Source of the DNA: Liolophura sinensis
Lineage: Eukaryota; Mollusca; Polyplacophora; Chitonida; Chitonidae
Direction of reading: 5' to 3'
DNA length: 64,000 nt
NCBI RefSeq assembly: GCF_032854445.1
Contig: NC_088303.1
Span: forward strand, 20,155,501-20,219,500
The notes under the pieces: model-generated
What the model was told of the DNA's origin: nothing
What the model saw: only the letters and a program-made list of their open reading frames with translations
The model's database searches: none
Position numbers and translations under genes: made by a program
Shown: piece after piece, positions 42,594-63,600 of the stretch
Position numbering within the stretch: the stretch's first letter is position 1
Layout of the letters: the number at the start of each line of letters is the position of its first letter

Positions 42594-42599
42594 CATAGC
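42594..42599. other. 6-bp target site duplication, left copy
   Basis: CATAGC directly before the left TIR; identical to 62,976-62,981. Confidence 0.85.
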
Positions 42600-42950
42600 A
42601 GTAGTAGAGAATGTGGCTTATGTTCATTATTGAGGAGGAGGTTTGAGGAGGAGGTTTTGAGTGTGGTGGTGACGTCACACCTGCCAGCCCGAAGGGCTGG
42701 TAGGTGTGACGTCACCCCTCAGTTGTGGGTTTTTTCCACGGCGCGGGGTGTATGTGTGTATAGACGAGTGTGATATAGTGTATAGTATAACAGTATAGGG
42801 AAAAAAGAGAGAAAAAAAAGAGGCAAAACGTCGGCTTGTAAAGTCGAGTGGGACAGCTCGAAAAGAGCTCCCGGGCGCCAAAACGGGCCAATGGGCGAGC
42901 CGGATTTGCCCCAAAACTGCCCAATGGAGGGCCCGCAAAACGGACCTTTC
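42600..42950 (+). repeat. Left terminal inverted repeat
   Basis: Begins AGTAGTAGAGAATG, then GAGGAGGAGGTTT repeats, a CRE-bearing palindrome, a 'ccacggcgcggggtgtatgt' block, a TATA-like AT stretch, and a CCAAT-rich block (GGGCCAATGGG, CTGCCCAATGG). Matches the reverse complement of 62,590-62,975 apart from one replaced block of about 40 bp. Confidence 0.9.
42668..42717. promoter_or_regulatory. Palindrome with two CRE sites
   Basis: Near-perfect inverted repeat whose arms carry TGACGTCACACCTGCCAGCC and its complement around a GAA loop. Each arm holds the consensus cAMP-response element TGACGTCA. Only one arm is kept in the right TIR (near 62,876). A second, shorter copy lies at 42,977-43,010. 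Confidence 0.7.
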
Positions 42951-44004
42951 CGTGGGGAGACGGGGAAAAAATGAACCCAGCCCAAAGGGCTGGTAGGTGT
43001 GACGTCACCCCTTCGATGGGGAGTTTGGTGGGTTTTTTCTACGCCGCGGGGCGTATATGTGTATACTAGCGTTATGTATTGACGCACCGGCTGGCTGGCG
43101 ACAATGTATACAATGTATACAAGGCGCAGCCGATCGAAAACCACGTGTCCAAACAAAAACCACGTGTCAAAACAAAGCACAGCTGACAACAGTGTTGGCC
43201 TGACTGCAGGCTGACTGGTGGGTAGGATCGCTCAGCGTGTCTTTGCAACACTGTTCGCCCAGGAAGGCTCACTGCTGCAGGCAGAGGGTCGGTGCTATGA
43301 ACCGTAGACCCTGTCGGTGGGATTTTTTTTTGGGTGATCTGCCTGTCTGTCTACCTGCTGGTTGTGGTAGGGATGGATGGATCGACACCACACCCAAACA
43401 TGCACGTACACTGGAGACTCTACTCTACTCTATACTATATATAGGCGGTGTAGTGGAATAGAGCACAGTAGAGTATAGGGGGAAAAAAAGAGAAAAAACT
43501 TGGATCAGAAAATCTCGAAGCTTATAAGAAACTTGGAGGAGATCAATGTGATGGTATTTCACACATATTTTCAGCATCCATATTTTCACCAACATCCACA
43601 TAGTTAAGCAAGATATGTAACAGCCATTTCTTAAACGGTTAAATTCAATTATTCTTTATCCACTAATCTTAACACACATATACACAAGACAACCAAATGA
43701 CCATGAAGGAGAAAACGACAACTACCAGGTTATATTAAAAAATTCTTTTTTTCAATGTTTTATTCTTTTCTATCAACAATCTGAAATACAAAAGGATATA
43801 CCGAAACATAAACTTGCAGTACTTGCTATGGGGAACCTAACAGAGCCCATACGTGTAAATGATAAAAATGATATTGAAAATAAATGATAAATGGGTGCAC
43901 TGAACAGCTAATTTGACTTTGAAAAGACCGGTCAAAGCAGGTGTCCAAAATGTCTGGCTCTATTAGTAGAGATTGCCAAATGACCATCGAAGAGAAAACG
44001 ACAA
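42951..44004. other. Element interior next to left TIR, no gene seen
   Basis: Holds a second partial copy of the TIR module (to about 43,050), a GC-rich stretch to 43,400 and a third short fragment near 43,460-43,500. A segment at 43,693-43,735 duplicates the stretch at 43,977-44,013 just beyond the A1CF-like stop codon. Confidence 0.55.
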
Positions 44005-44123
44005 CTACCAGTAGGTCATCCATGGCTTTTCACATGATCTGTTGGAAGCGTTCCACAGGTGGGTCGGGTGGTTGGCATAGCTCGGCTGGGTGTAAGGACA
44101 TGGTGGGCTAATGTACTCTAGGG
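44005..44123 (-). CDS. A1CF-like, terminal exon
   Basis: Acceptor GCTGCAG|CCCTAG and stop TAG at 44005-44007. Encodes ALEYISPPCPYTQPSYANHP and ends CEKPWMTYW. Phase fits the donor at 44609. Part of it is copied, inverted, at 54,447-54,521. Confidence 0.65.
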
Positions 44124-47100
44124 CTGCAGCACAAAACAATAAACTCTGACAATTCTAGTTATGCAAATAGTTACTTTCCTGGCTAATATTCATTCAAAAT
44201 ATACTTGGGTAACCGCATGCATGTATGTATGTGAGTGTTTAACCATTCATTCTTCAAACGAGTTGCTAACACACAGAATACCTGATGCATGTCACAAGTG
44301 CTTACATAACGGCAAACAGCTCAGCTACGAATAGTAATTTTCAGCAATTAAGTTTTTTGCAGCATGTCTTATTACATATGATCCAGTAAAGAAGTTTTTT
44401 TATACTTTTCATATACTGTTACAAACATGTAACATGAGATAGCTCTTACTTTCTTAAATCAAGAAGCAAAGCTGGTTCAGGAAAGAAAGAAGACATCAAA
44501 GCATACAATGCCCACTTATTCACTGATGTATCACAAGTGAAAAAGGGTAAAGCTTGGGCGGTGAAGCATTTGTTTGTCTTTCCTTTTTTATCTGGACACT
44601 AACTTTACCTTCAAGAGGCACACCTAACTGCATCAAAGTGTACTCTGCTGCAAAAACCTTTGCCCCCTCAACAGTAGAACACAGTTTATTTGGGGTAAAT
44701 GGGTTACGATTTGGAAACTGAGTACCGAGAGCTGGTATGGTGATCTGAAAGACAAATGTACTTTACCATAGATTAACAATGTAAATGCCTAACATCAACT
44801 TCTACATATACTTATACATGTATAAATCCCAACCACGACATTCTTTTTTCGATTTACTTCAGATCAATTATTTTTATAAGATAATTTACTTCTTATTCTT
44901 TCTGGTACACATGGACATGATTAATTGTATAAATAAATAATAAAAAAAGTTACATTCCAGCAAAAGAACTTGATTCTTATCTCTTCAAACAAGTTTCTTA
45001 TCAACATTTTGTTGAAACCTATGGTAGTACCTTGTACAAAAAGAGCTCTAAGAGCTGTTGGGCACCACTTCCATCCCTTCCCATGAGAGAATGAAGCTGG
45101 TATACAGGACTTCCCCATCCATTCTTCTGGCAAAGGTCATCGAGCACCTATAGTGAACATCGTTACATGCATGACACTCTTGATTTACTGAAGCCTCACT
45201 AGGGCAATCGGACTATAAATTAAAGGTAATTAGTAAAACAAAAAATTCTTCCACAAAACAAAATCATGGTCAAAGGTTAAACACAGAGCCTTGCATTATG
45301 ACAACTTTCAATGATAACAAAACAGCCAATTCTTTTTTTTTTTTTTTTTTTTTTTTAGCTATTAACACACCTGATTAACGAAATTTAATTCAAAACTCAT
45401 TACATGTATAGGAAATATTAGATAAGAATTAGTTTCTAAGTATGTTACCTGTTACTTCAAAGTTTAAACAAACACCCATCTTCAACGAAACTGAACTAAC
45501 TCACCTTCTGGTTAATTGCACAATTGGTTCATGTCTTTTAGTATGGCGTAGGCAGATTATAGATTTTAAGACTGCGTAATCCTTTAAGCATGCTCCAGAA
45601 TAAGTTGCAATGCGCAACTTTTTAATGGGATATGGGACCGGAAACCTTCTGCATTGACAACGATACACACCTCTGCTGGATGTTTCCTAAAGCCCCACCC
45701 CCTCATCATCCCTGGGCCTCGCACAGGGCTTCTGAGGCGGATTATAGATTTTAAGACTGCGTAATCCTTTAAGCATGCTCCAGAATAAGTTGCAATGCGC
45801 AACTTTTTAATGGGATATGGGACCGGAAACCTTCTGCATTGACAACGATACACACCTCTGCTGGATGTTTCCTAAAGCCCCACCCCCTCATCATCCCTGG
45901 GCCTCGCACAGGGCTTCTGAGGCGGATTATAGATTTTAAGACTGCGTAATCCTTTAAGCATGCTCCAGAATAAGTTGCAATGCGCAACTTTTTAATGGGA
46001 TATGGGACCGGAAACCTTCTGCATTGACAACGATACACACCTCTGCTGGATGTTTCCTAAAGCCCCACCCCCTCATCATCCCGCAGCCTCGCACAGGGCT
46101 TCTGAGGCGGATTATAGATTTTAAGACTGCGTAATCCTTTAAGCATTCTTCAGAATAAGTTGCAATGTGCAACTTTTTAATGGGATATGGGATCGGAAAC
46201 CTTCTGCATTGACAACGATACACACCTCTGCTGGATGTTTCCTAAAGCCCCACCCCCTCATCATCATCCCTCGGCCTCGCACAGGGCTTCTGATGCCCAT
46301 GGGACCTCGCTCTGCCAACGCCCTGCTAACAGTACAAAAAGCACAAATATTCAAGCTATTTCATGGTAAAAATTATGTGACTGAGCTTTCTTAAAGTTTC
46401 TTCTTCCTGCTTTTCCTGCTGAGATGTTCCCATAAAATCAAATATATTGAGCTATTCAGGTCCGGTTGATGAAACTTAATGCTTCTTTGTATACTTACAT
46501 GTAAGAAGCTCATAAAACGTTTTTTTGAGGACATTGCATGGATAACACATAAATGCAACTTCTTTCACATCAAATGACTCTATCAGCCACAATGGTAAAA
46601 CCACTAAATATGGTAGTGTACCTTTCCTACATGTATGCTGTTGAATGGAAAGCTACAGAGTGACAATTAAAGAATATAGGTCACAGGTGGTACGAAGTTC
46701 ACATTAATTCTTGGCAAAAAGCAAGCCCCTACCATTCAATAAAATCGCCTGTTTTCAATAAAGCTATGCCTTGCACAGTCTTGCAAATATTTCTGCTCCA
46801 TGTGAAGCACCTTCCAACTGAAATCCGTCATTACCTCATTTTGGATTTCAGTTGCCAAAGTAGACTTACCCATGTCATTTTTCTAGTTCTCACTCTGTAC
46901 TCTGTATCCATTAGCATATCAGCAGGAGAGCTACAATACTGTACTTTGTAAAACCCACTTACATATGCTTATTTACAGTTACAGTTATTACAGACAAATC
47001 ATAAGGTAAAATTTAATCTTAGGTTATCTAAGATTTCATCTTAGATGATCACAACTGAAATGATTTAAAACCAAAGACAAATATCCTGTTCCTGGTCTGA

Positions 47101-50100
47101 AGCACACAAATGACAGAGCATCTGACACTTCTGAGAACCCTGATATTAAACAGACAAACTGGACACACACGGTGGAATATGACAACCTATGCTCTTAATT
47201 CTGCAAATATTGTTCTAAGCTAACCGATTTTTTATAAAAATTCCAAGAATACAACTCTATTCTGACTGCAAGATCATCTGCTGTGCTGGATTCTCATCTG
47301 TATTCTTACAGTCATGGAAAAAATAATTAGACCATTCATATTTTCTTTGGTTTCTTGTTCATTTTAATGCCTGGCAACCCTAAAGGTGTATTAACCGAAG
47401 ATTACAATGAATACGACAAAAATCCAGCTGATTCCATAATACTTTGTTGTATTTGATATGCTTTAAGGTCAGTTGTATTCCTAGGGTGTATGCGAGGCAA
47501 TTTCATGCTTTCCATTTACATGCAGACTTACATAAAGAGTGGTTTCCTGTTTACATGTAGGCTTACATAAATAGGGGTCTCTTGTTTATATATTAAGACG
47601 CAGCACAACTCGGTAGTTGTCAGCTCTCATAATGCCTAAAACGAAAGAATTATGTGGAGCCAGAAAGGCAGCCATCTTGGCACAGCTGGATACTGGATTG
47701 AGCGAGCGACAAGTGGCCAAAAAACTGAAGATCTCTAAGACAACAGTTCATTACACCAAGAAAAAGCAAGCCGAACATGGTACTACAAAACTGCTAGCTG
47801 GTCGAGGCAGGAAACGTCTTTCTACCCCACGAGATGACCGAGCACTCATCCGGTCCAGGATCAAGAATCGTCGTCAGACCTCCAGAGACCTTAGAAATGA
47901 GTGGGCATTGTCAACAAATGTGACTTGTTCAGCAAGAACAGTTCGAAACCGACTTCTTGAAGCTGGCCTAAAGTCGCACAGGGCACGGAAGAAGCCCTTC
48001 ATCAACGAGAGGCAGCGGAAGGCCCGCTTGCGTTTTGCGATGGATCACTAGAATTGGACTGTTGATGATTGGGCTAAAGTTCTCTTCAGTGATGAATCCA
48101 ATTTTGAGTTGATGCCTACTCCAGCCAACTTACTGGTTAGGAGGAAGCCTGGGGAAGCCTACAAACCAGACTGCCTTGCTCCTACTGTAAAGCATGGGGG
48201 TGGATCAGTGATGATCTGGGGTTGTTTCAGTATGGGTGGAACAGGACAGATGCAGTTGTGTGAAGGGAGAATGAACCAAGTCACATACAGAGCTACTCTT
48301 GAAAACAGTCTTCTTCCATCAGCTGCTCAACTCTTTCCTGGCTCGAATGACTGGATTTTCCAACAAGACAATGCCCCTTGCCACACGGCAAGGTCAGTTA
48401 AAACCTGGATAGAGAACCGGAACATTCGAACCCTGAATTGGCCTGCTCAGTCACCTGATCTGAATCCAATTGAAAACCTGTGGAATATTATCAAGTTCAA
48501 AATGGAGAACCACAAGCCCAAAAACAAAGCAAATTTGTTCGAATTTTTGCAACAGGAATGGGCTGCTGTGACCGCAGGGCAATGTAACAAACTGGTGGAG
48601 AGCATGCCAAGGCGCATGGCTGCAGTCATCAAAAACAATGGGCATGCAATCAAGTACTAACTCCCGTGTGAGACTGAGAGTCATGTGACTACGTGACTAG
48701 GAGACAGGAGAAAAAATGAAATGCCAAAATGTTTTTGAGAATACAGTTGCCACATCTACAGATGTATGAACTTAAGTGATTTTGGTCATTGTCAAGAAAG
48801 TCATAGAGAACTGATAGATATCACCTCTTAAATAAAACCCTTATGAACTATTTCTGTTTTCATCACTTTCTTTGCCCAAACAAATGTTCCTTCAGTTGTG
48901 CAAGGTTTTAAAATGAACAAGAAATGGGAGAAAGCAAGGGTGGTCTAATAATTTTTTCCGTGACTGTATATTGGGTGAACAGAGTTGTGGATTTCAGGCC
49001 AAAATAGTTCTTACCTTGCGGGTGGTGGAGACATCGGGTTGTAATACAATGGAGGCGAGTAACTAGGATCATTGCCATAGCCCTGAAAAAGTTGTCACAG
49101 TATCAAGTACACTTGTCATACAACCAAAGCATGCATAAGCCCCTACCTTAACATACGAGGAACTCTTACCCTGACATAACAGAGCCCACTACCCTGACAT
49201 ATGAGGAACTCTTATCAGTAAAATTCAATTATTTACCTGATATAAATATATATAAATAATTTAACTAGGATCAAAATCATAGCCATAGCCCTGAAAAATT
49301 TGTCACAGTATCAAGTACACTTGTCATACAACCAAAGCATGCATGAAAGCAGATTCGCTCAAAGGGTTGAACAGCTGACTTGCTTCCACTGTAGGTACTT
49401 GACCTATAAATTCATGTACAAATCCAGCCAGATATATGAGAACCCCCTACCTTAACATATGAGGAACTCTTACCCTGACGTAACAGAGCCCACAACCCTA
49501 ACATACGAGGAACTCTTACCCTGACATAACAGAGCCCACTACCCTGACATATGAGGAACTCTTACCCTGACATAACAGAACCCCCTATCCTACCACATGA
49601 GGAACTCTTACCCTGACATATGATACTTCTTTCTGCTTCCAAGATTCCAACGCTTCCTGGCCTCTGTTGTATGTTCTATCAACCTCACCCAAGTGGCAGT
49701 CCTGATTAGCCTGCAATAAAGAATTTTCATCAGTGGTAAAATTCAATTATTTACCTGATACAAATATATATAAATAACTTAACTAGGATCAAAATCACAG
49801 CCATAGCCCTGAAAAATTTGTCACAGTATCAAGTACACTTGTCATACAACCAAAGCATGCATGAAAGCAGATTCGCTCAAAGGGTTGAACAGCTGACTTG
49901 CTTCCACTGTAGGTACTTGACCTATAAATTCATGTACAAATCCAGGTCTTACTCCAATTTCCTCCATCCATAAACCTGATCGTGGTGGAATAATGTGACA
50001 ATTCTTGAATATAGTATTATACACTGATTAAAAAAAAAGTTATTATTAAAGATTTTTAGCATGTAGTTCTAATCATTTTTTAATCAACGGCCTGAAAGGC

Positions 50101-53100
50101 TAAGGCATTATACTACACATGAGGCCTTCAATATTTCTACACACTGGAAAATTTCAACATCATAAGCCATCAGTGGCATTCCCTACCCTTGCATACCGGA
50201 TCTGAAACCCCTATGCTTACATACCAGAAACTCTTATGCTGACATATGAGAACCCCTTACCCTTCCACTCGTGGCCCAGGTGAGTATAATTACTTGTGTA
50301 GTTCTGAGTGGATTGTCTCCCTAATAGTTAGTTTCTCTTCATTGTGAAGGGGAATATACCTTCAATGGTTGACACAACAAATAATGTTATCCTACCACAT
50401 GAGGAACTCTTACCCTGACATATGATACTTCTTTCTGCTTCCAAGATTTCAACGCTTCCGGGCCTCTGTTGTATGCTCTATCAACCTCACCCAAGTGGCA
50501 GTCCTGATTAGCCTGCAATAAAGAATTTTCATCAGTAGTAAAATTCAATTATTTACCTGATATAAATATATATAAATAATTTGGTTTTTATATGCAAAGC
50601 TTACTTCACACACACCTGACATATGAGAACCTCCTACCCAGATATATGAGAACCCCCTACCTTAACATATGAGGAACTCTTACCCTGACATAACAGAGCC
50701 CACTACCCTAACATGCAAGGAACTCTTACCCTGACATAACAGAGCCCACTACCCTGACATATGAGGAACTCTTACCCTGACATATGAGAACCTCCTACCC
50801 AGATATATGAGAACCCCCTACAGATATATGAGAACAACCTACCTTAACATACGAGGAACTCTTACCCTGACATAACAGAACCCCCTAGCCTACCATATGA
50901 GGAACTCTTACCTTAACATATGATACTTCTTTCTGCTTCCAAGACTCCAATGCTTCCTGGCCTCTGTTGTATGCTCTATCAACCTCACCCAAGTGGCAGT
51001 CCTGATTAACCCGCAATAAAGAATTTTCATCAGTAGTAAAATTCAATTATTTACCTGATATAAATATATATAAATAATTTGGTTTTTATATGCAAAGCTT
51101 ACTTCACACATACACGACAGATGAGTTTACAATGGTGAAAGAAAGCTGATGGGGGAAAAATGTGGACAGGTCCCGGTTTCCGACCAAATACCTTCCACAA
51201 ACTCTCAATTTGAAAACATTTGAACTCTTCCAACTTAACACAGTTTACTCCACATACTATGTTACAAACAAACTTAACCTATGGAAGACGATGATCGCTG
51301 GGCTGTCCTGAATTACACATTTGAGACGATTTTCACGATGTGGCAGCAACATTGACCAAATGATTTCTTACCTGCTCTCTTCCTTTTGCCCATGCAACCT
51401 CAATGTAAGCACCTTCAACATTCATTCCTAGAGAGAAATATACATGACTTATTATATAACGCCTTCTCACCTTGATCTTCCTTTAATTTTATTTCTTGAA
51501 AGAATGAGGACGTAGTACAAATGCTACACATCAGTTAAAAAAGTGTTTCAGATACAGTCTACCTAGAGTTTCTCCCAAAGAAAACTTCTTATTTTCTCAA
51601 AAAATTCCTGGCAAAATGGTCCCGGGATCTTGGGTTCAATATTCAGCCTATTACATGTAACTGTTGAAACAACTTCCCTCTTTTAAACATTTGATCATTT
51701 AATGTTCAACAGCTTCTTTTCATGCTGAATGATTTATTGATTGGCCCGTTTTTACGCTGTACTCAAGAATATTTCACTTATACGACAGTGATCAGCATTA
51801 TAGCATGAGGAAACCAGGCAGAGCCTGGTGGAAACCCACAACCATTCACAGTTTGCTGGCAGACCTTCCCATCCATGTTGAATGAGGGGTGATATTAAGT
51901 TAATAATAAGCTACCATAAAAGCCAATTTATACAGAAATTTATCCAAACAAATATTCTAGAGAATGCCCACACCTTATGTTTTGAAGTGTGAATTTATAC
52001 TGTATGTGCTCTTCTGTAAATATATGTAAGTCTGTCCCATAAATGTGAGCCATTTCCTGTATGTAGTTGGAGTATCAAACATCCTATAGGCAAGCGATGT
52101 GTCAGTTATTCACTGTTTCATCTTAATTACTTGAGTTAGCATGTTTTCCAAATATTCTCCCTTAGATGTTGGTGGATATTCTATCATGTAATTTTCTGTA
52201 AACATCAATCAAGTGAAAAACTAGTTAAAACATACTAATGTGCCACATGCGACTGACAAACGAAAATGAACTTTTACTTATCAGAAACAGAACTATCCGA
52301 ATGGAAATATATCACACTCTATAAATGCACACAAAAACTACATTCGCCTACCGATAGAAAAAATATACTTCCGTTAATGCATTTGTATTTATCCAAAACC
52401 AATCAACACAACTCCAAAATAAATAATTTTTCTCACCATTAAGTTTAGTCATGGCCATGATAGCAGCATCTCTGTCTCTAAAATGAATGAATGCATAATC
52501 TCTTATCTTCTTTACTCTTTCCACAGCGTTGTCTCTTCCCACAACTTGACTGCACAGCTTTCTAATTTTGTCTTCTGTAGTTGTCGACATAAGGTTCCCC
52601 ACGTGCAAAACCACCTTCTGTAATACAAATATGCACAACATAAATATTATTCCAGTCATACAAATATGCACAATATTAATGTAAAAGATGACGACGCATC
52701 AGTGCTTTTCAGCCATAAGTGACTATATTAATTATCACCACAGCCTCCCATACAAAAGAAATCACTTGTTGCAAGAAATGTTGCGCGCACACCACCCTCT
52801 CATGACAGAAAATGCAACAAATGCTGCATGCGCGCACACCACCTTCTCGTGACGGAAAATGAAAGAGCAGACGATAAGAAATTTCAAGAAGTTACGCGAC
52901 ATTTTACACATATCCACCCACACAAAATACCCCTCTCATACAGAAAATTTTTTAGTTCAATTATAACTTTTCAAATAACGGCTTACATAAAGGTCAAATT
53001 TGTTTGGACTGTGATGCCTACTCGTGAATTTTACAACTAACCAACCGATATTTCCGACGTCTGGTGCCGTCTACATTGGCAATTAAATGTGTTTTAATTT

Positions 53101-53553: not shown

Positions 53554-53639
53554 ACCTACACCCTACTGCACCCTGCTGGTCTCACTGCTGACGAACTAGA
53601 AGTAGGCAAACTGGACTTTGCCACGCACGTGCGTGGACT

Positions 53640-54121
53640 TAGAAGAGCCCTACAGCGCCATCTATGATGTCCAATAATTATTGTTTTATTCAAATTTACA
53701 TAGAAAAGGCATCAAATCCAGAGAATATGACCACAGAAACATGTAAGGCAACATATAGGTAAAAAAATAAGCTGATAACTTGGAGGGACACGGTTATGTA
53801 GCACTCGCTGTGCCACTGCGAAAGCAGTTCACCCGTGAGTCTCAAGTATCGAAAATTGAACTGTTCATAGTACGAAATGTGAGAAGAGCCCTACAGCGCC
53901 ATCTATGATGACCAATAATTATTGTTTTATTCCAATTTACATAGAAAAGACACCAAATCCAGAGAATATGACCACAGAAATGTGTAAGGCAATATATAGG
54001 TGAAAAAATAAGCTGATAACTTGGAGGCATACGGTTATGTAGCACTCGCTGTGCCACTGCGAAAAGCAGTTCACCTGCGAGTCTCAAGTATCGAAAATTG
54101 AACCATTCATAGTACGAAATA
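53640..54121. repeat. ~240-bp tandem duplication
   Basis: Two copies (about 53,640-53,880 and 53,880-54,121) each beginning AGAAGAGCCCTACAGCGCCA. Lies just upstream of the A1CF-like start, so it may carry promoter sequence. Confidence 0.9.
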
Positions 54122-54389
54122 TGGCATGTGTTTATACTTCAGTGAGTGTTCGGCTATACCAACTATCTGGGTGATTGAAAATGACCCAAATCCAATCTAC
54201 TATCGCTGACATCGATTTGACAACAGGCATTGTCCTGTGTAATATTCAAAAATAGAAAAAACAAATTTTGTTTTCGCGTGGTTCTAGCTTCTGCATTGTC
54301 TTCTAGAACAGCTTATCATGTTCCAGGCAAACTTTCGCACTGCGACGTCCAATGAGCGAGGGACATGACAGACCAATGAGCGCGACAAG

Positions 54390-54530
54390 GAGCAAAACGT
54401 TGGCTTGTAAAGTCGAGTGGAGCAGCTCCAACAGCTCCATGCTATGCCGGCTATGCCAACCACCCCGACCCACCTGTGGAACACTTCCAACAGATCATGT
54501 GATCAGCCATGGATGACCTACGGTACATGT
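54390..54530 (+). repeat. TIR-module fragment joined to an inverted copy of the A1CF-like last exon
   Basis: 54,394-54,430 matches the TIR block ('ggcttgtaaagtcgagtgg'). 54,447-54,521 matches, in the opposite orientation to the gene, codons of its last exon (YANHPTHLWN to CEKPWMT), with 'ccacctgtggaac' and 'aacagatcatgtga'. A gene fragment fused to element sequence. Confidence 0.8.
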
Positions 54531-55477
54531 ATATTGATCCGGCATTTCAATCTTTCAGACATGGATATACATGTATAACTTAGATTAGGGCCTGTAAACT
54601 AAACACCTGCCTAAACATGGCCCGCATGAGAAAGGTTTGTATTATAATGTGTTATAATAAAGACCGTATATTTTGACAAATAGAGTTAATTTTTTTTTTT
54701 TCTTTTTTCATTTTGAAATTTCAGTTTAATTTTCTATCATCTGTATCGATCAATTATACTGCTGGTTTAATATACAGAACCTGTTAAGTATACAGAACCT
54801 GTTAAGTATACATGACACGTCTGAGTAAAAGTCAGACTTACCTGGTGACGACACCCGCCTTGATTACTATAGGCTTGATTCTGGGATCGACCATGGCTGT
54901 AAGGAATCAGTGACAAATCCGAACGTTATCTGAAGACGCCGCGTTTGGGCTTACTCTTCAGGAGATGCACTTACAATTTCTGCTTTTCTGACTGCTGTTG
55001 TTGTAGAGATGAAAGCGGCTTCTGCAAGATGGCAACAGTACCGAACAGCAGACGTTCATGATAAGACCGGAAGTACATCAACAACAGACGGAGCAGTTAC
55101 CTCCCGTATTCCATATTATACTGATAGAGTAAAGCGTCGGCAGAGGCCCACTGCATCCACACGTGAACAAATACATATACATGGGAAATGAAAACCATTA
55201 CTGAAAACAGAGCTAAAGAAATACTGATTTCTGGACTTCTGATAACGTTTGTTTCACCCATAGAGTACATATAAAAGTGTACTTGTTTGGGTGTTTATTA
55301 AGTCTCGGATTAAGGCAGTCTATCTTAATCCCAGATTGAACTCACTTGAACTCTTTGATAATTCCTGGTACAAATTATCCAGTTTCTGAGTTAAGAAAAC
55401 AAGTTTTTAGAACTATAATCTATATGTTAATCTACTACATGTATATGACATGTGACCCAAGAACCTCTCCACACTGG
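54531..55477. other. Element interior, no gene seen
   Basis: AT-rich; short random open frames only. Confidence 0.5.
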
Positions 55478-55672
55478 GGTCGCTGTGAGTCCAGTTCATG
55501 CTGGCTTCCTTTCGTGCCGTACATGGGGAGGTCTGTCAGCAACCTGCCCATGGTTGTGGGTGTCCTCTGGGCTATGCACAAATTCCTCCCACCAAAATGT
55601 TGGTCGCCTTTGTATAAGTAAACATTTCTTGAGTATGACGTACACCACCATTGCCCAATCAAATCAATAAAT
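55478..55672 (+). mobile_element. SINE family 1, diverged fragment
   Basis: 'gtgagtccagttcatgctgg' to 'aatcaaatcaataaatgaat'. Confidence 0.75.
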
Positions 55673-55809
55673 GAATAGTAAGCAAGGCAGGGATGTCCAT
55701 ACCACGACCATGTTTAAACTTCCAAAGATAATTTGCTCATTCCTGTAATGTTGTGTTGGTGTTAAAAAGTGTTCATAATAATAAAATAAAAAATAAAAAA
55801 AGAACTTAC

Positions 55810-56265
55810 CTGGCTGTGTTCCCCACGTTGATGGACACGCCAGTCCCACAATCGGTAAAAAGTTTTACCACAGGCAATCGCACACACGCTCGTCGTTTTT
55901 TTCCATGCTCCCGCTGGCAGCGCACCAAATGCTCCCGTCGGGAAAACGCCCGCCCGCAGGTTGGGCAGGTGAATCCTTTTTTCTGGGGTTGGTGGTGTGT
56001 ATGGTGGTGAGGGGTGGTGGTGCGTCTGCTGGTGACGCAGCCAGTCATCCCACCGACTGAAGTCCCTGGCGCACGTCATGCAGGTAAACGGCTTCTTCTT
56101 CTTCCCTTCACCTGCATGATTTCCATCTCCATCTCCATCTCCAACCATTCTCGCGCGCGGATAGGTCCGTTTTGGGGGCCATCCATTGATCCGTTTTGGG
56201 GGCAAATCCCGCTCACCCATTGGTTCGTTTTTGGCGACAAAGAGCTCTTTTCGAGCAGTCCCCAC
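55810..56265 (-). CDS. C2H2 zinc-finger exon with shifted middle finger
   Basis: Finger 1 FTCMTCARDFSRWDDWLRHQ and finger 3 (VCAIACGKTFYRLWDWRVHQ) lie in one frame. The finger between them, FTCPTCGRAFSRREHLVRCQ, is only open in a neighbouring frame, so two compensating shifts flank it. The exon ends at a good donor (AGCCAG|GTAAGT, last base 55810). The upstream ATG at 56265 falls in a TIR-derived CCAAT module; an ATG at 56148 (MVGDGDGDG) is the likelier start. DNA binding is inferred from the C2H2 pattern. It may be a decaying gene. Confidence 0.6.
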
Positions 56266-56310
56266 TCAACTTAACAAGCCGACGTTTTGCCTCTTTTTTT
56301 CACTCCCACT
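56148..56310 (-). promoter_or_regulatory. TIR-derived promoter module upstream of the C2H2 exon
   Basis: Reads, on the minus strand, 'ggcaaaacgtcggcttgtta', a shortened hairpin CTCGAAAAGAGCTC and several CCAAT boxes (AACCAATGGGTG, GATCAATGG). Same order as in the TIR. Confidence 0.65.
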
Positions 56311-56805
56311 ACCACCACTGCCCCTATACTATACTCTATTATACTACACTCCACTCTAGTATACACACCCCGTCGTGGAAAAAAACACACCACCACTACC
56401 TGACACACACCTGACACGTCACAGGTGTGACGTCACTCCATGCGCAAATAAGGCAAACACAACAGAGCAGATTAAAATGACTGCATCTTGGGAAGGGCAG
56501 CCCAAATTACCAAAAAGCTCCTGATTAACCTTTGAATGACGAAGGCAATTCAAGAATGAAAAACCATTTATGCGCATGTCTCATAAATTCTTGAATAATG
56601 TTGAGTCGTACATGTAGCGATTGGACCATATGTGATATAGGGGACAAAAAAAAATAAATCTGTACTCCCACTTCACTGCCAAATGTTAACAAGAATGTGG
56701 AATAACCCACCTTCCAGCTACAGGTTTTCAAATGACTTAATGCTTGAATTAAAAAGTATACATATGTAAAAATAAAACAAGCATCATTACGTTGTCTTTT
56801 TTTAC

Positions 56806-56851
56806 CTGAGACACGCGTAGTGATACATGACCTAACCACTCCCATCACCAT
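56806..56851 (-). CDS. Short leader exon, copy 2
   Basis: Encodes MVMGVVRSCITTRVS before donor TCTCAG|GTAAAA. Nearly identical to the exon at 57673-57733. Later exons not identified. Confidence 0.4.
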
Positions 56852-57672
56852 CCGCCCACGCTAAATAGTCCCCCTTACATAACTCGTTCTCGCGCGCTTA
56901 TCTACATGGAGTAGAAAAAAAACACATCCAAATGTCACCTACATAATTACACGCAGTAGACCATATCACTTCAACGAATCGTCAATAACCTAAAAATTTT
57001 TTATACATAATACATAGGAACCATCCAGATAGGTAGGTAGCCGTGGTTTGTCAGCTGTGGTTGATCATGCGTGGTTAATCACAGCCCGACTGGTTGGTAA
57101 CACTGTATACAAGACCGTCTACGTGAACAGCACGGTCGGTTGGATGCTATGCCTGCCTGGCTGACAACAATGTTTAGGCAGGCTGGCAGGTTGGTCGTCG
57201 CTCAACAACCGTGCGGCTCGCCGGACCGATTTCGTTGACGTCCGCGCTCCGCCACAGGCCAGGTGGCACGTTTGCCGGATTCTCTGGTCGGGGGAGACCC
57301 CTAACAGATACACTACAACGTGTGCGTTACACTGAATCCTTATCCATTAAAATCCATATCACTGCTTTGATATAGGATATACTCCTACTGTGGCTTGTTG
57401 CAAGCAAAAGTGTAAGTATATCTGTCAAAAAAATACCCAATATTGGGAAAAAATATTTCCCAACAACCCTTATCAAGGCTAAAACCCAACAGCTCTTGTC
57501 AGGGCTAATCATTTACCTATCATTTACCACCATGTATCGGAGTAGACGGGGGCCTGGGAATGTGGTGTGAATATCTGTGGTGAGGTTTGGAGCAGCTTGT
57601 CGTCTATGGCTAATAAAAAAATGCACCAACCTGTATGGTTCTCAAAAAATACGACGCGCCATTTTTTTGTAC
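56852..57672. other. Element interior, no gene seen
   Basis: Contains the upstream part of leader copy 2 (GTTATGTAAGGGGGACTATT on the minus strand), and a GC-rich block 57,040-57,300 with inverted CAGGCTGGCAGG-like motifs. No exon recognised. Confidence 0.45.
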
Positions 57673-57733
57673 CTGGGACACGCGTAGTGATACATAACCG
57701 CACCACGCCCATCTCCATCCGCGCACGCGACAT
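57673..57733 (-). CDS. Short leader exon, copy 1
   Basis: Encodes MSRARMEMGVVRLCITTRVP before donor TCCCAG|GTACAA. It lies downstream of a TIR-type promoter module (57,750-57,925). Paralogue of 56806-56851, sharing 'gtatcactacgcgtgtc'. Confidence 0.42.
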
Positions 57734-57739
57734 AGTCCC

Positions 57740-57925
57740 CTTACATAAGCGAAAATAGTCCCCTTACATAACCGATTGGTCTATTTTTTCTTACGTAACC
57801 CCCTTCTCGCGCCGATTAGTCTGTTTTGTGGGCCCTCCATTGGTTCGTTTTGGGGTAAATCCCGTTCACCCATTGGTCTGTTTTTGGCGACCAAGAGCTG
57901 GCCCACTTAACTTTACAAGCCTATT
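57740..57925 (-). promoter_or_regulatory. TIR-derived promoter module upstream of leader exon 1
   Basis: On the minus strand: AACAGACCAATGGGTGAAC, AACGAACCAATGGAGGGCC, AGACTAATCGG, then GTTACGTAAGAAAAAATAGA. Two good CCAAT boxes and the same spacing as in the TIR. Confidence 0.65.
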
Positions 57926-57994
57926 TAGTGTGCGAGCCAAACATATGATATCTGACAGTGTGCTGATATAACACAAAACTTGTTTAGATTTCGA

Positions 57995-58050
57995 CCGCGG
58001 CCCGGACAGGAAGCCAGCATGAGTTGGACTTGAACTCTCAGTGATTGCAT
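57995..58050 (-). mobile_element. SINE family 1 fragment
   Basis: 'gacaggaagccagcatgagt' and 'ttgaactctcagtgattgca' only. Confidence 0.6.
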
Positions 58051-58249
58051 TCGATATCTATTTAACAAATGTTTTCTGTATTGTTTTATTTTCACGTGAC
58101 AATTGTGTTAGATAGTCCATTTGCTTTTTTTTTGTTTCAGATTTAATGCCGAACGCAACAATACTGTACATATGTACGATGTCGGGTCGACTGTGCCTTT
58201 TTCTTCTGTTGTTAAACACTTTCATGGCAGAAAATGACCCTGAACAAAA

Positions 58250-58792
58250 GAAGGTATCTACTCTAATAAAACCGAATTGAGATACATGTGAAATTTCATA
58301 ACCCTTCTGATCAGACAACTCTTCTTGGCGGGGGTTATAAACCTTGTGGTCAGGCAATTCTTTTTGCCTGCTATCATAACCATTGTGGGTAGACAGTTCT
58401 TCTTGGCGGCGATTATAACCCTTGCGATCAGGCAGTTCGTTATACCCGCAGTTATAATCCTTGTCATCCAGAAATCTTCCTGATCATGGTTATAACCCGC
58501 ATGATGACGCAGATCTTCTTGGCGGCGGTTACAATCCTTGTAATCAGGCAATTCCTTATAACCATGATTACTACCCTGAAAATCAGGCAAGTTTTCATAA
58601 CCGTCCTTGTGATTTGGCAATTCGCCATAGGTGGAATCGATTGTGGTGTCGTGTCCTTTGGCGATTGGATAGAGAACGACCAGTGCAAGGCCGATTATAA
58701 TTATCGACATAATGCACGAAAACAGGAACAAACCGGTTAGATTTTCGAAAAAGAATAGTTCCAGCAAACCAGCAAAAGGAACGAGCTTGCCG
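58250..58792 (-). CDS. Membrane protein exon with Tyr/Asn/Glu-rich tandem repeats, frameshifted
   Basis: Acceptor CGTGCAG|CGGC at 58792. A hydrophobic segment (LFLFSCIMSIIIIGLALVVL) is followed by a hydrophilic tail of about 13-17-residue repeats on the theme GYNRRQEELPDHK (for example YKELPDYKDCNRRQEDL). The frame shifts by one base near 58,465, after GYNHDQEDF; the repeats resume in the next frame (GYNELPDRKGYNRRQEEL, then KVYNPRQEELSDQKGYE) down to about 58,285. I do not recognise a family. Regular Tyr suggests a signalling or adhesive tail, but this is a guess. The upstream exon was not found. Confidence 0.55.
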
Positions 58793-58991
58793 CTGCACGA
58801 AGGGATAAAAGTAAAATGAGAAGTTGTTAGACAAAAGTCCACTAAATTTTTTTAATACATAATACATAGGAGCTATCGGGATAGATATCAACCCTAGCCT
58901 GACACACTGACACACTGACCCAGTCCATATAAAAAAGAAAACACAAAAACCGGGGATGGATTCCATAGTAAGGTAACAGTATTATTATTAT

Positions 58992-59289
58992 TTACAGCAA
59001 TGTACAGGTATGTAACACAGAGCGTTGATAGACCTCTGTGTGGTTGGGAGGGAGTCGCACTTCGTACATTAACGTGGGACGAACAATCTCTACGTAATAC
59101 GCTTGAATAGGTCGGGAATCCTCGACATGCTGACAGACGTCTTCAGTGTACACTCGCAGCACCTGCAGTCGGCTCTCGTTCACCCTACCATCCGCAAACA
59201 TACTATGTAGTACCCTGGTGTAGCTTTGCAGGTCGGTGACGACAGCTACCCAGTCTTTCCATTGCGGCGTTGTACGGAGCTTCGCCAGG
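58992..59289 (-). CDS. Alternative terminal exon of the PC4-like gene
   Basis: Acceptor TTTCTAG|CCTGG, stop TAA at 58992. If joined to the donor at 59743 (GA|GTGAGTG) the phase gives DLAKLRTTPQWKDWVAVVTD, then MFADGRVNESRLQVLRVY and a C-terminus HTEVYQRSVLHTCTLL. About 98 codons, no stop, no known domain. It competes with exon 59535-59631 for the same donor. Confidence 0.6.
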
Positions 59290-59534
59290 CTAGAAAAGAC
59301 ATAAAGAAGACACCGTCGTCATTCTAATGCCGTCACCGACCGAACCCTATCCACATCAATCAAAACAATAGATAGATAGATAGACTATCCCTTCACCAAC
59401 AGGTAAAGACAATAACCAACACAAAAGACCAGGGTCGTCAACCTGAAAACTTTTTTTATTTATTTTTTTCGAACTCGAACAGTGAACACGAATGAACGAA
59501 TAAATACATGTTGTAAGTGTCCATTATTTTGTTG

Positions 59535-59631
59535 TCATGGTGAGAAATGTCTCGTGATGACGATTGTATCGCCAATATGAAAGTCCCGACATTGGTCAAT
59601 GTTTATAACGCGCACCACCGTAGTCATCTCC
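59535..59631 (-). CDS. Short terminal exon with RHIM-like motif
   Basis: Acceptor TTTACAG|GGAGAT in phase with the donor at 59743, stop TGA at 59535. Encodes EMTTVVRVINIDQCRDFHIG then DTIVITRHFSP. The order hydrophobic-x-hydrophobic, Cys, FHIGD, hydrophobic strand resembles the RIP homotypic interaction motif core ((I/V)Q(I/V/L)G followed by D/N and beta residues), except that His replaces Gln. RHIM motifs build amyloid-like signalling fibres in cell death and innate immunity, and some animal viruses carry them. Homology is tentative. Confidence 0.5.
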
Positions 59632-59742
59632 CTGTAAAAAACACACATAGGTAAACACAAAACGAGAATGTATGAAGGGAAAAAAAACAAACAAAAAAAA
59701 AGCTGGGTAAGGGTGGTGCGGTTAAAACAAAAACACACTCAC

Positions 59743-60665
59743 TCGGTCATCGTAGCCTGGGTGGCCTGGGTAGCCTGGTTGGGCTGGTTGGCTTGGTTGT
59801 TAGGCCGGATTGTAGGCTGCTCGTCAGGTGCGGAGAGGCTGTTGGCTGTCATCAAATACTCCACGTACATCTGGGCGAATGCCGGGTTGGATTTGTTGAT
59901 CGGCGTCTCATTTAAAAACTGTCGCAGTTGATCTTTCACACTCTTCTCCACAGCCCACGGGAGGGAGGCTGCCTTACGGGCCTGGCGCATGAACTTGACC
60001 AACACAGTTCCCTCTTTCAGGTAACGCATACGGGCCTCGTCCGCGATACTCAGGGCCAGCTCTCGGTTCTCCAGCAAGGAAGGTCGGGGAGGAGATGGAT
60101 CACTCGCAGTGTTGGTGGATTGTTGACCGTACACATCGCGCTGTAACTTGCGGAGGTGGGGTTGGAGAGCTACATCGTAAGCTTGCCACAGCAAGGCTTT
60201 TAGCGCCGTCTCAAGCTCAGGGTTTAACGGCTCCGCCTTTTCCACCTTTTCCACTGGGATGTCGGGGATGGTGGGGGTTGCAGTAGCAGCAGTAGTCGCA
60301 TCATCGGCAGTCTCCCCATCAGCAGTCGTCACAGCAGCCGTCACAGCAGCGGTTAAAGCAGCACTCATAGCAGCATTCACCTCACCGCCAGTCTCACCAG
60401 TATCTCCAGTCTCTCCAGTTTCTCCAGTCTCTCCAGTCTCTTCAGTCTTTCCCTCCTCCGTTTCCATCATCTCCATCTCCATCCCCGGCTCTTGGGGCTC
60501 TTGGGGGTCTTGGGGCTCTTGGATGTCGTCGTTATCACCAGCCTCGATCACCACCAGCACCAAGGCGTCGATGTCGGGGATGGCCTGGACTAGTTTTTGC
60601 CAGTAAGTCCAGTACTTTAGCGTGATACCCTCACTCGTCGACCGTTCGGCTGGTAGGCTCGCCAT
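59743..60665 (-). CDS. Element protein, second frame: PC4-like C-half, acidic/Ala linker, helical region
   Basis: Starts MASLPAERSTSEG and overlaps the upstream frame by 49 nt in the -1 frame. Residues about 14-37, ITLKYWTYWQKLVQAIPDID, look like the C-terminal helix region of a PC4/p15 single-stranded-DNA-binding domain whose beta strands are in the upstream frame. Then come an acidic stretch with ETGETG repeats, an Ala/Thr-rich segment, a helical part (LETALKALLWQAYDVAL, MRYLKEGTVLVKFMRQARKA) and a Gln/Thr tail. Donor GA|GTGAGTG at 59743 leads to either of two terminal exons. Not a known Polinton core protein. Confidence 0.65.
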
Positions 60666-61072
60666 TTCTTCACATGAACGTACAGGACACCCTCCGAGTT
60701 CCTCAGCGTGGACAGAAAGTACCCGTTGGAGAGTGGCTCCCGCACAGGTAAACCGGCCTCAGGTAGATCAGCAGCCAGGGTCTTGAGCCGAGTCCACCCC
60801 ACCCCGTCAAGCCTGACGCGTTTGGGTGGAGCGTTCGGGTCTGTCGGTGATTGGCAAATCTCAATCGTCTCGTCTCTACACACCCCCACCCACAGCCAGG
60901 AGGCCAGCTGTAATTTGGCAAGAACCTCGCTGGGTAAGGGCAGGCACACCTTCCTCTTCTTCTCGGGAGGTTGTTGTTGTTCGGCTATGGTGGATAGCCG
61001 GGCAGGTACAGACGCTGAGCGTTTCATCCTGATGGCAGCATGCAGGGGGTTCACGGTGGTGGAGCGTTTCAT
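60617..61072 (-). CDS. Element protein, first frame: nuclear PC4-like protein
   Basis: 151 codons from MKRSTTVNPLHAAIRMKRS. An SV40-type nuclear signal (PPEKKRKV) is near residue 40. One PC4-like unit (WLWVGVCRDETIEICQSP ... RVRLDGVGWTRLKTLAADL) is followed by the beta half of a second (GYFLSTLRNSEGVLYVHVKK). The helix expected next is encoded in the -1 frame by the overlapping ORF, so the two frames look like one protein. PC4-type domains bind single-stranded DNA and act in transcription or replication. The promoter lies about 175 nt upstream. Confidence 0.62.
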   Translation of the reverse strand: MKRSTTVNPLHAAIRMKRSASVPARLSTIAEQQQPPEKKRKVCLPLPSEVLAKLQLASWLWVGVCRDETIEICQSPTDPNAPPKRVRLDGVGWTRLKTLAADLPEAGLPVREPLSNGYFLSTLRNSEGVLYVHVKKWRAYQPNGRRVRVSR

Positions 61073-62800
61073 CTCACCAGGCAGGTAGGCAGGTAGGCAG
61101 GTAGGTAGGTAGGTCGTGTAGCAGTCTCTTCTCTTCTTTCGGCGGGTCAGTAGGTCGGGTCGTCAGCAGGCAGGCAGACAGGCAGGCAGGCCGATAGAGC
61201 GTCAGGTGCGTCTGAGGCTGCCGGTCGCTGTCTTCACCGGCTTTTATCCTATCCACGCGGAAATTCACCACACGCTGATTGGTTCGTTTTTTCTTACGTA
61301 ACCTCTTCTCGCACGCTGATTGGTCCGTTTTGCAGGCCCCCCATTGGGCTGTTTTGGGGCAAATCCGGCTCATCCATTGGTCCGTTTTGACGCCAGGGAG
61401 CTCTTTTCGAGCTGTCCCACTCGACTTTACAAGCCGACGTTTTGCCTCTTTTTTTCTCTCTTTTTTTCCCTATACTGTTATACGGTTATACTGTACACTA
61501 TATCACACTAGTTTATACACACACGCCCCGCGGCGTGGAAAAAACCCACCCAACTTCCCCAGCGATGGAAATTCACCACACGCTGATTGGTTCGTTTTTT
61601 CTTACGTAACCTCTTCTCGCACGCTGATTGGTCCGTTTTGCGGGCCCCCCATTGGGCAGTTTTGGGGCAAATCCGGCTCACCCATTGGCCCGTTTTGGCG
61701 CCCGGGAGCTCTTTTCGAGCTGTCCCACTCGACTTTACAAGCCGGCGTTTTGCCTCTTTTTTTTCTCTCTTTTTCCCTATACTGTTATACTATACACTAT
61801 ATCACACTCGTCTATACACACATACACCCCGCGCCGTGGAAAAAACCCACAACTGAGGGTTGTCTTCACCGGCTTTTATCCTATCCACGCGGAAATTCAC
61901 CACACGCTGATTGGTTCGTTTTTTCTTACGTAACCTCTTCTCGCACGCTGATTGGTCCGTTTTGCAGGCCCCCCATTGGGCTGTTTTGGGGCAAATCCGG
62001 CTCATCCATTGGTCCGTTTTGACGCCAGGGAGCTCTTTTCGAGCTGTCCCACTCGACTTTACAAGCCGACGTTTTGCCTCTTTTTTTCTCTCTTTTTTTC
62101 CCTATACTGTTATACGGTTATACTGTACACTATATCACACTAGTTTATACACACACGCCCCGCGGCGTGGAAAAAACCCACCCAACTTCCCCAGCGATGG
62201 AAATTCACCACACGCTGATTGGTTCGTTTTTTCTTACGTAACCTCTTCTCGCACGCTGATTGGTCCGTTTTGCGGGCCCCCCATTGGGCAGTTTTGGGGC
62301 AGCATGCAGGGGGTTCACGGTGGTGGAGCGTTTCATCTCACCAGGCAGGTAGGCAGGTAGGCAGGTAGGTAGGTAGGTCGTGTAGCAGTCTCTTCTCTTC
62401 TTTCGGCGGGTCAGTAGGTCGGGTCGTCAGCAGGCAGGCAGACAGGCAGGCAGGCCGATAGAGCGTCAGGTGCGTCTGAGGCTGCCGGTCGCTGTCTTCA
62501 CCGGCTTTTATCCTATCCACGCGGAAATTCACCACACGCTGATTGGTTCGTTTTTTCTTACGTAACCTCTTCTCGCACGCTGATTGGTCCGTTTTGCAGG
62601 CCCCCCATTGGGCAGTTTTGGGGCAAATCCGGCTCACCCATTGGCCCGTTTTGGCGCCCGGGAGCTCTTTTCGAGCTGTCCCACTCGACTTTACAAGCCG
62701 GCGTTTTGCCTCTTTTTTTTCTCTCTTTTTCCCTATACTGTTATACTATACACTATATCACACTCGTCTATACACACATACACCCCGCGCCGTGGAAAAA
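61034..62800. repeat. Promoter-proximal direct duplications next to the right TIR
   Basis: The block beginning GCAGCATGCAGGGGGTTCAC at 61,034 recurs at 62,300 (period 1,266 bp), carrying the start codon region, the CAGGCAGGTAGG tracts and the TATA region. Inside it the CCAAT/TIR module is repeated four times (about 61,270; 61,585; 61,905; 62,535). Confidence 0.9.
61241..61390 (-). promoter_or_regulatory. Core promoter of the PC4-like gene
   Basis: On the minus strand: CCAAT boxes (GACCAATGGATG, CCCAATGGGG, GACCAATCAGCG, GAACCAATCAGCG), then a TATA-like GGATAAAAGCC at 61,241-61,249. The predicted start codon is 175 nt further. Exact copies upstream could act as an enhancer. Confidence 0.7.
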
Positions 62801-62975
62801 ACCCACAACTGAGGGTTGTCTTCACCGGCTTTTATCCTATCCACGCGGAAATTCACCACCTTCGGGCTGGCAGGTGTGACGTCACCACCACATCACCACA
62901 CTCAAAACCTCCTCCTCAAACCTCCTCCTCAAACCTCCTCCTCAATAATGAACATAAGCCACATTCTCTACTACT
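62590..62975 (-). repeat. Right terminal inverted repeat
   Basis: Reverse complement of the left TIR from AGTAGTAGAGAATG inwards, with an extra GAGGAGGAGGTTT unit and with the second arm of the CRE palindrome replaced by the 'ccgcgtggataggataaaag' promoter block. Confidence 0.9.
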
Positions 62976-62981
62976 CATAGC
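62976..62981. other. 6-bp target site duplication, right copy
   Basis: CATAGC directly after the right TIR. Confidence 0.85.
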
Positions 62982-63099: not shown

Positions 63100-63600
63100 A
63101 TATTAATAATAAATATACTAGCCACCGACCTCTTCGCGGATGTTGTAGGCCTACTATATGCCTATAGGAAAGTAAATTAGCCACCGCTCTGCTCGTGGGT
63201 GTTGTGGGCCTACTTTATGCCTAGTATAGGAAGATAAATTAGCCACCGCCCTGTTCGTGGATGTTGTAAGCCCACTTTATGCCTAGTGTAGGAAGGTAAA
63301 TTAGCCACCGCCCTGTTCGTGAATGTTGTGGGCCTACTTTATGCCTAACACAGGAAGGTAAATTAGCCCTCGCCCTGTTCGTGGATGTTGTAAGCCTACT
63401 GTATGCCTACCATAGGAAGATAAATTAGCCCCCGCTGTGTTCGTGGATGTTGTGGGCCTGCTTTATGCCTAGTATAGGACGGTAAATTAGCCACCGTCCT
63501 CTTTGTGGATGTTATAAGCCTACTGTATGCCTAGCATAGGAAGATAAATTAGCCACCGCCCTGTTCGTGGATGTTTTGGGCCTACTGTATGCCCAGTATT
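63100..63600. repeat. Minisatellite, ~60 bp unit, inverted relative of the 40-42 kb array
   Basis: About eight copies with 'taaattagccaccgccctgt', 'tcgtggatgttgtgggcc' and 'tactttatgcctagtatagg'. The reverse complement contains the same 'aacatccacgaa.agg.cggt' core as 40,069-41,945. Ends in a short (TA)n run. Confidence 0.93.

What the first reader, a model, noticed from the sequence alone, without database searches (positions are those of the whole stretch)
42594..62981. 20,376-bp Polinton-like element carrying cellular-type genes and no polymerase
Seen: inverted termini of about 350 bp beginning AG, perfect 6-bp flanking repeat CATAGC, unrelated sequence outside. Known: Polintons/Mavericks make 6-bp duplications, have long TIRs beginning AG and are 15-25 kb. 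Inferred: this is a non-autonomous derivative that swapped its replication and capsid genes for others, including an intron-containing RNA-binding protein gene. Moving an intron-bearing gene would need DNA-level capture. I know of no described element of this make-up.
Basis: partly seen in the sequence, partly recalled or inferred. Interest (0 to 1): 0.92.

Follow-up and report, generated by a model that had tools for sequence, protein, structure and literature searches.

The report
Gutted Polinton carrying a host gene
In a chiton (a mollusc) a virus-like jumping element has lost its own polymerase, integrase and capsid genes, carries an intron-containing RNA-binding-protein gene instead, and has inserted as a unit at seven or more places in the genome.

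Summary
Confirmed and extended. The 20,376-bp unit (42600-62975) has inverted ends starting AGTAGTAG and a perfect 6-bp duplication CATAGC. There the TIR forms 18 further inverted pairs 13-25 kb apart; 18 of the 19 pairs have a perfect 6-bp target duplication. Eleven carry a Polinton integrase; all six of these that I examined also hold PolB (one only a quarter) and a capsid-type ORF. Seven others, the window included, carry an intron-bearing, RRM2-less RBM46/A1CF-like gene, with no integrase listed. All seven have different duplications. Three copies compared with the window are collinear over the cargo, introns included, mostly at 91-99% identity. One has identical arms over 396 nt and matches an annotated gene. 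In that copy the cargo lies between PolB remnants and the integrase 5' end, where full copies have their morphogenesis genes. This is a non-autonomous Polinton subfamily that disperses a cellular-type gene at DNA level. Mobilisation in trans is inferred. Capture route, cargo function and packaging are not shown. Maverick cargo genes are known from nematodes; I found no report of a multicopy cargo class stripped of core genes. The window's gene copy has two frame breaks.

The parts
42594..42599 (+). target-site duplication CATAGC, left copy
42600..43081 (+). left TIR arm (AGTAGTAG...) with TIR-like inner block
43072..58870 (.). cargo block shared with elements C437 and C11 (and C406 up to the contig end, window 56740); in C11 its left edge follows PolB remnants and its right edge the integrase 5' end (edges approximate)
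44030..53553 (-). RBM46/A1CF-like gene, start codon to stop codon, nine named exons plus tandem exon copies and one alternative exon; lacks RRM2; two frame breaks (first coding exon, last exon)
53153..53553 (-). first coding exon with RRM1, GT donor; frame break inside
52437..52617 (-). RRM3 exon, AG/GT
52131..52195 (-). alternative exon as in P0010
51372..51427 (-). exon e3
49612..51013 (-). three tandem copies of a 33-aa exon with intronic 23/46-bp minisatellite; the first copy has a non-AG acceptor
49015..49082 (-). exon e5
45550..46323 (-). exon e6 and three tandem partial copies (185-bp units)
45031..45147 (-). DSRM exon e7
44609..44744 (-). DSRM exon e8
44030..44123 (-). last exon e9; frame break inside
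47307..48968 (+). Tc1-type transposon nested in an intron; the intron runs on without it in cargo copies C406 and C437
54392..54525 (+). scar: TIR-like fragment next to an inverted fragment of the gene's last exon; the exon fragment recurs in C406, C437 and C11
54841..54894 (-). possible exon resembling the N-terminus of tubulin cofactor A (18 aa, E 1, tentative)
55777..56088 (-). decayed copy of the Polinton left-end C2H2 zinc-finger gene
56148..56384 (.). internal TIR-like (promoter-like, inferred) module
57774..57921 (.). second internal TIR-like module
58903..59142 (-). remnant of the integrase ORF (residues 1-74 of 477)
59742..60665 (-). ORF308, right-end Polinton ORF found in 16 of 19 TIR pairs; precedes the integrase in full copies
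60620..61069 (-). ORF150, right-end ORF with no recognisable domain
61229..62975 (-). right TIR plus tandem array of TIR-like blocks rich in CCAAT boxes
62976..62981 (+). target-site duplication CATAGC, right copy

Best explanation
A non-autonomous Polinton (Maverick) subfamily of the chiton Liolophura sinensis. SHOWN: it keeps the Polinton ends and right-end ORFs; a block of about 15 kb stands (read in one copy, C11) between remnants of PolB's 3' end and the integrase 5' end; the block holds an intron-bearing, RRM2-less RBM46/A1CF-like gene, start to stop in the four copies read; seven TIR pairs with this gene have seven different target duplications. INFERRED: an ancestral Polinton took up genomic DNA at DNA level (introns kept); PolB decayed; the units are copied and integrated in trans by polymerase and integrase of the TIR-sharing full copies, which act on the TIRs and make the 6-bp staggered insertion. 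Near-normal genome length would suit packaging, but packaging is not shown.
For: TIR pairs and TSDs in 18 of 19, incl. 7 of 7 cargo pairs: CATAGC, TTCACA, TGCACA, AAGGAT, GACGTT, AACTTA, GACCGG. Gene in 7 of 19 pairs, integrase in 11 of 19, no pair with both, one with neither (both searches scored only part of their candidates). Full copy C1 encodes PolB (E 1.6e-9), an rve+chromo integrase, an Adeno_IVa2-type ATPase and a weak S273R-type protease match. Core genes are in 6 of 6 examined integrase-bearing copies (C8:51456327 seen only over its left 10 kb; C10:4835855 with a quarter of PolB); PolB, capsid-type and ATPase genes are in 0 of 3 of window, C437 and C406 (C406 cut off by its contig end); C11 keeps two PolB pieces next to the cargo. 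Cargo collinear incl. introns, with the same inverted last-exon scar. C406 left flank unrelated. C11 arms identical over 396 nt. 16 of 27 RBM46-like places have ORF308 within 25 kb, chance about 0.008 each.
Against: No activity or particle was observed. The C2 pair lacks a TSD. 11 of 27 gene-like places have no ORF308 match within 25 kb, so not all copies are shown to travel this way. The PF03175 genome search put none of its 82 matches inside the pairs (91 of 144 candidates scored), although the C1 copy's PolB does match that model; I take it as a miss. Four of the seven cargo pairs were not read through: their lack of integrase rests on a capped list. The window's own gene has two frame breaks. 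Core genes may have been lost after, not before, some insertions.
Confidence: 0.87

Rival explanations
1. The cargo-bearing elements moved while still autonomous (PolB and integrase in cis), and lost the core genes after insertion.
For: C11 keeps two PolB pieces and a long left zinc-finger gene.
Against: Window, C406, C437 and C11 share cargo sequence, the same last-exon scar and only an N-terminal integrase stub; the four cargo pairs not read through have no listed integrase match (capped list).
Confidence: 0.1
2. The gene family spread by ordinary segmental duplication, and Polintons merely landed nearby.
For: Many gene-like places lie on one contig (C3), and 11 of 27 have no ORF308 match within 25 kb.
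Against: In C437 and C11 homology to the window runs from TIR to TIR; all seven cargo pairs have different perfect TSDs; the C406 left flank is unrelated.
Confidence: 0.03
3. A host gene copy was pasted into a resident Polinton in situ; the window unit itself never moved with the gene.
For: From the window alone this cannot be told apart (inference, no call).
Against: Collinear units at other sites with their own TSDs.
Confidence: 0.02
4. Coincidence: two unrelated repeats around a native gene.
For: Matching flanking hexamers arise by chance at about 0.0004.
Against: 18 of 19 pairs have TSDs.
Confidence: 0.001

Closest known systems
Polinton/Maverick self-synthesising elements
   Same: TIRs beginning AG, 6-bp TSD, 13-25 kb; TIR-sharing copies encode PolB, rve integrase, packaging ATPase, a protease-like stretch and ORFs that look like the Polinton capsid pair (the capsid call is recalled, no model hit)
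   Different: the window class has none of the core genes and carries a cellular-type multi-exon gene
Maverick cargo genes wosp and krma of nematodes (Widen; seen here only as a passage of meeting report PMC10680173)
   Same: a Maverick acquires host-type genes as cargo and spreads them
   Different: by recall those elements keep their own core genes; here the cargo class is separate from integrase-bearing copies, and transfer between species was not tested
Pack-MULE and Helitron gene capture (passages of PMC6431247)
   Same: DNA-level capture of host sequence
   Different: mostly gene fragments; different termini and enzymes (recalled); here a gene from start to stop in a ~20-kb virus-like element
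Ginger2 transposons (passages of PMC2836005)
   Same: integrase-type transposase, 6-bp targets
   Different: TGTNR termini and AT-rich RTATAY targets; here AGTAG termini and mixed targets

Membership tests
Polinton/Maverick | long TIRs beginning AG | tested here: met
   AGTAGT... at both ends of all 19 pairs; that AG is the family's start is recalled
Polinton/Maverick | 6-bp target-site duplication | tested here: met
   window CATAGC; 18 of 19 pairs
Polinton/Maverick | protein-primed PolB in the element itself | tested here: not met
   none in the window element; present in TIR-sharing copies. So it is a non-autonomous derivative, not a full Polinton
Polinton/Maverick | RVE integrase in the element itself | tested here: not met
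   only residues 1-74 of the 477-aa ORF remain; 11 of 19 TIR pairs have it
Polinton/Maverick | capsid, ATPase and protease genes | tested here: not met
   absent in the window; ATPase and, weakly, protease recognised in copy C1
Polinton/Maverick | shares ends and genes with full members of the family | tested here: met
   TIR ends of the paired copies 87-97% identical to the window TIR over the aligned part; ORF308 in 16 of 19 pairs
RBM46/A1CF/RBM47 gene family | RRM1, RRM2, RRM3 and DND1-type DSRM | tested here: inconclusive
   RRM1, RRM3 and DSRM present; RRM2 motif absent in all 13 L. sinensis rows (some are isoforms of one locus) but present in 103 of 107 other listed rows; an RRM2-less offshoot
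Ginger2 | TGTNR termini, RTATAY targets | tested here: not met
   AGTAG termini; targets; definition passages

The most novel reading that the evidence does not exclude
These are natural 'gutless' virus genomes: helper-dependent Polintons that keep only ends, right-end genes and near-normal length (cargo pairs 17-21 kb, integrase-bearing ones 13-25 kb), are replicated and packaged by their full siblings, and use the freed space to carry a germline-type RNA-binding gene within and perhaps between animals, a eukaryotic counterpart of phage satellites.
Probability: 0.25. Interest if true: 0.95.

Novelty: new variant of a known kind. Interest (0 to 1): 0.83.

Why it matters
It shows in one genome, with likely helpers and cargo copies side by side, a DNA-level route by which an intron-bearing gene becomes a dispersed family. 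It makes testable how virus-like transposons capture genes and whether satellites of Polintons exist in animals. It also warns that an annotated multicopy 'RBM46' family in a chiton genome is at least partly transposon cargo.

Tried and rejected
Bcl-2-like protein at 58992-59318 (Pfam E 0.026): rejected, the ORF overlaps the N-terminal part of the integrase ORF. PC4-like reading of ORF150 and a RHIM-like reading of 59538-59738: recalled ideas, no Pfam or PDB support. AlphaFold models of ORF150 and ORF308 had pLDDT 41 and 43, so no fold search was run. Viral-contig scans with ORF150, ORF308 and P0002 found no relatives. Tubulin cofactor A: tblastn with a recalled sequence found nothing at E 0.01; the 21-aa stretch aligned to the right N-terminus but at E 1, below a designed protein, so it stays tentative. 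The native RRM2-containing gene was sought with P0017 but the search did not complete. The tree used two mis-phased exons of the window copy; only its grouping of the L. sinensis rows is used, and identities come. Selection: pN/pS 0.57-2.05 in five of six pairs of four copies, and 10 replacement to 0 silent changes in the sixth; coding exons no better conserved than introns (minisatellite, exon-6 array and Tc1 left out), so no purifying selection was seen.

Papers: only PMC12441733 was read whole; PMC10680173, PMC6431247, PMC2836005 and PMC11068029 were seen as passages; the rest as search listings.
Full report
Observation. The inverted ends, their start with AG and the CATAGC duplication are exactly where stated. 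The element is 42600-62975, 20,376 bp. The right end is more complex than described: a tandem array of TIR-like blocks, with further TIR-like blocks inside the element at 56148-56384 and 57774-57921. CCAAT boxes are dense in the right array (10.9 per kb against 1.8 in 1-42000), which suggests promoters (inference).

Gene content. On the minus strand from 53553 to 44030 lies a gene that runs from start to stop codon with RRM1, RRM3 and a DND1-type DSRM. The splice sites that I read are GT/AG except the acceptor of the first copy of a repeated exon. This copy has two frame breaks. A Tc1-type transposon sits in one intron. Other recognisable ORFs are Polinton right-end genes (ORF150, ORF308), the 5' stub of the integrase ORF and a decayed zinc-finger gene of the Polinton left end.

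Host and gene family. A protein search listed 13 rows from the chiton Liolophura sinensis, some of them isoforms, 83.7-96.8% identical to the window's exons; all 13 lack the RRM2 motif, which 103 of 107 other listed proteins have. The window's assembly has 632 contigs and 609,464,459 bases, as the published L. sinensis assembly has 632 scaffolds and 609.5 Mb; its C1 is 96,433,062 bp, the length of scaffold_1, and C2, C3, C4, C7, C8, C11 and C12 also agree exactly with table lengths, while C6, C10 and C13 are 3-6 kb shorter than the nearest entries.

The family in the genome. The window lies at G000:C9:20155501-20219500. The 361-bp TIR query gave 97 matches with 40 of 191 candidates scored, so counts are lower bounds; the window's own right end, for one, is not in that list. 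I paired the listed ends into 18 inverted pairs 13-25 kb apart, 19 with the window; two ends stayed single. Perfect 6-bp TSDs flank 18 of 19: 8 of 8, 9 of 10, 1 of 1. The pair without one is C2:12757008; at C13 the TSD fits the outer of two right ends. Integrase matches fall in 11 of 19 pairs (150 of 983 candidates scored, further matches not listed). The RNA-binding gene falls in 7 of 19 (107 of 231 candidates scored). No pair has both; C6:37375230 has neither. For the pieces that I read, tblastn agrees: no P0007 match in C1, C7:20987474, C10:4835855, C4:17768492, C12 or the left 10 kb of C8:51456327, and no integrase beyond the N-terminal stub in window, C437 or C11. An eighth cargo element lies at the end of contig C406, with only its left end held.

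Full copies. The pair C1:90154990-90172231 encodes PolB, an integrase with chromodomain, a packaging ATPase and a stretch matching the S273R protease at E 3e-4. Two ORFs look to me like the Polinton major and minor capsid proteins (recalled, no model hit). tblastn with its proteins finds the core set in C7:20987474, C4:17768492 and C12, in C10:4835855 with a quarter of PolB, and PolB and the capsid-type ORF in the left 10 kb of C8:51456327. Against this, a genome search with the PF03175 model listed 82 matches, none inside the pairs; since the C1 polymerase does match that model, I take this as a miss of the first look.

Cargo copies. The gene runs from first to last exon in the four copies read: window, C406, C437 and C11. 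For the other four places inside TIR pairs, exons up to about residue 355 of 384 are listed. C437 and C11 are collinear with the window from TIR to TIR; C406 is collinear with window 43072-43366 and 43581-56740, where its contig ends, and has the right-end ORFs at its left end instead. Outside the minisatellite and TIR arrays the longer cargo blocks are 91-99% identical, introns included. All four hold an inverted fragment of the gene's last exon upstream of the gene. C406 and C437 run through the Tc1 site without Tc1. The left flank of C406 matches the window's left flank only by short repeats. In C11 the left end keeps a long zinc-finger gene and two pieces of PolB, and the cargo begins about 170 bp after the second piece; on the right it ends where the integrase ORF begins. 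So there the cargo stands where full copies have capsid-type, ATPase and integrase genes. C11's arms are identical over 396 nt, the window's 97.7% over 346. The annotated protein P0004, listed on a contig of C11's length, matches the C11 first exon without a difference over its first 113 residues.

How it works. Shown: structure, shared ends, separate insertions. Inferred: the full copies supply integrase and polymerase in trans, as the cargo class has neither. Whether the DNA is packaged is open. The cargo shows no purifying selection: pN/pS 0.57-2.05 in five of six pairs of four copies, the sixth (window and C406) with 10 replacement and no silent changes; exons are as diverged as or more diverged than introns (identity to the window in exons and introns: C406 98.87 and 98.85%, P 1; C437 97.91 and 98.67%, P 0.07; C11 97.21 and 98.65%, P 0.0015). 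It may be passive freight or a gene under changing selection.

How far it reaches. Of 27 RBM46-like places that I took from the 109 matches, 16 have an ORF308 match within 25 kb, against a chance of about 0.008 each, using 97 places from the 128 matches. The other 11 may be older, decayed or native; the native RRM2-bearing gene was not located because that search did not complete.

Known or new. Maverick cargo genes are known in nematodes (passage). My searches of the paper library listed no paper whose title or shown abstract start describes a Polinton class that has lost its core genes and carries a multi-exon host gene in many copies; most subscription papers and preprints are not held. I therefore call it a new variant of a known kind.

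Noticed in passing
L051/L052 (C11:26114754-26134353) and the window: Coding exons of the cargo gene differ more than introns between the window and C11 (P 0.0015), mostly by amino-acid changes; gene conversion or diversifying selection could explain it.
   Followed up: partly
window 49612-51013 and P0003-P0014, P0023: A 33-aa exon is repeated 0 to 4 times among the family's annotated proteins and three times in the window, embedded in a 23/46-bp intronic minisatellite.
   Followed up: partly
L044:3457-7590 (C1 copy): The Polinton polymerase ORF of 1378 aa matches VSR-type endonuclease structures at residues 841-940 (E 3e-4), which looks like an insertion inside the polymerase.
   Followed up: no
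G000:C3:25204109-25208413: Three integrase matches at about 1.9-kb spacing lie next to RBM46-like fragments at C3:25201526-25202755.
   Followed up: no
window 51732-51871 and 55453-55679: Dispersed short repeat, found at eight places in window 1-42594 and in C406; SINE-like by distribution only.
   Followed up: no
window 47307-48968, C406:28205 and C437:14976: Tc1 transposon with one stop in its transposase frame; the same intron in C406 and C437 runs on without it.
   Followed up: partly
window 29272-31509, 35876-37001, 40230-41941, 63119-63599: Large tandem arrays with 49-, 59- and 62-bp units surround the element.
   Followed up: no
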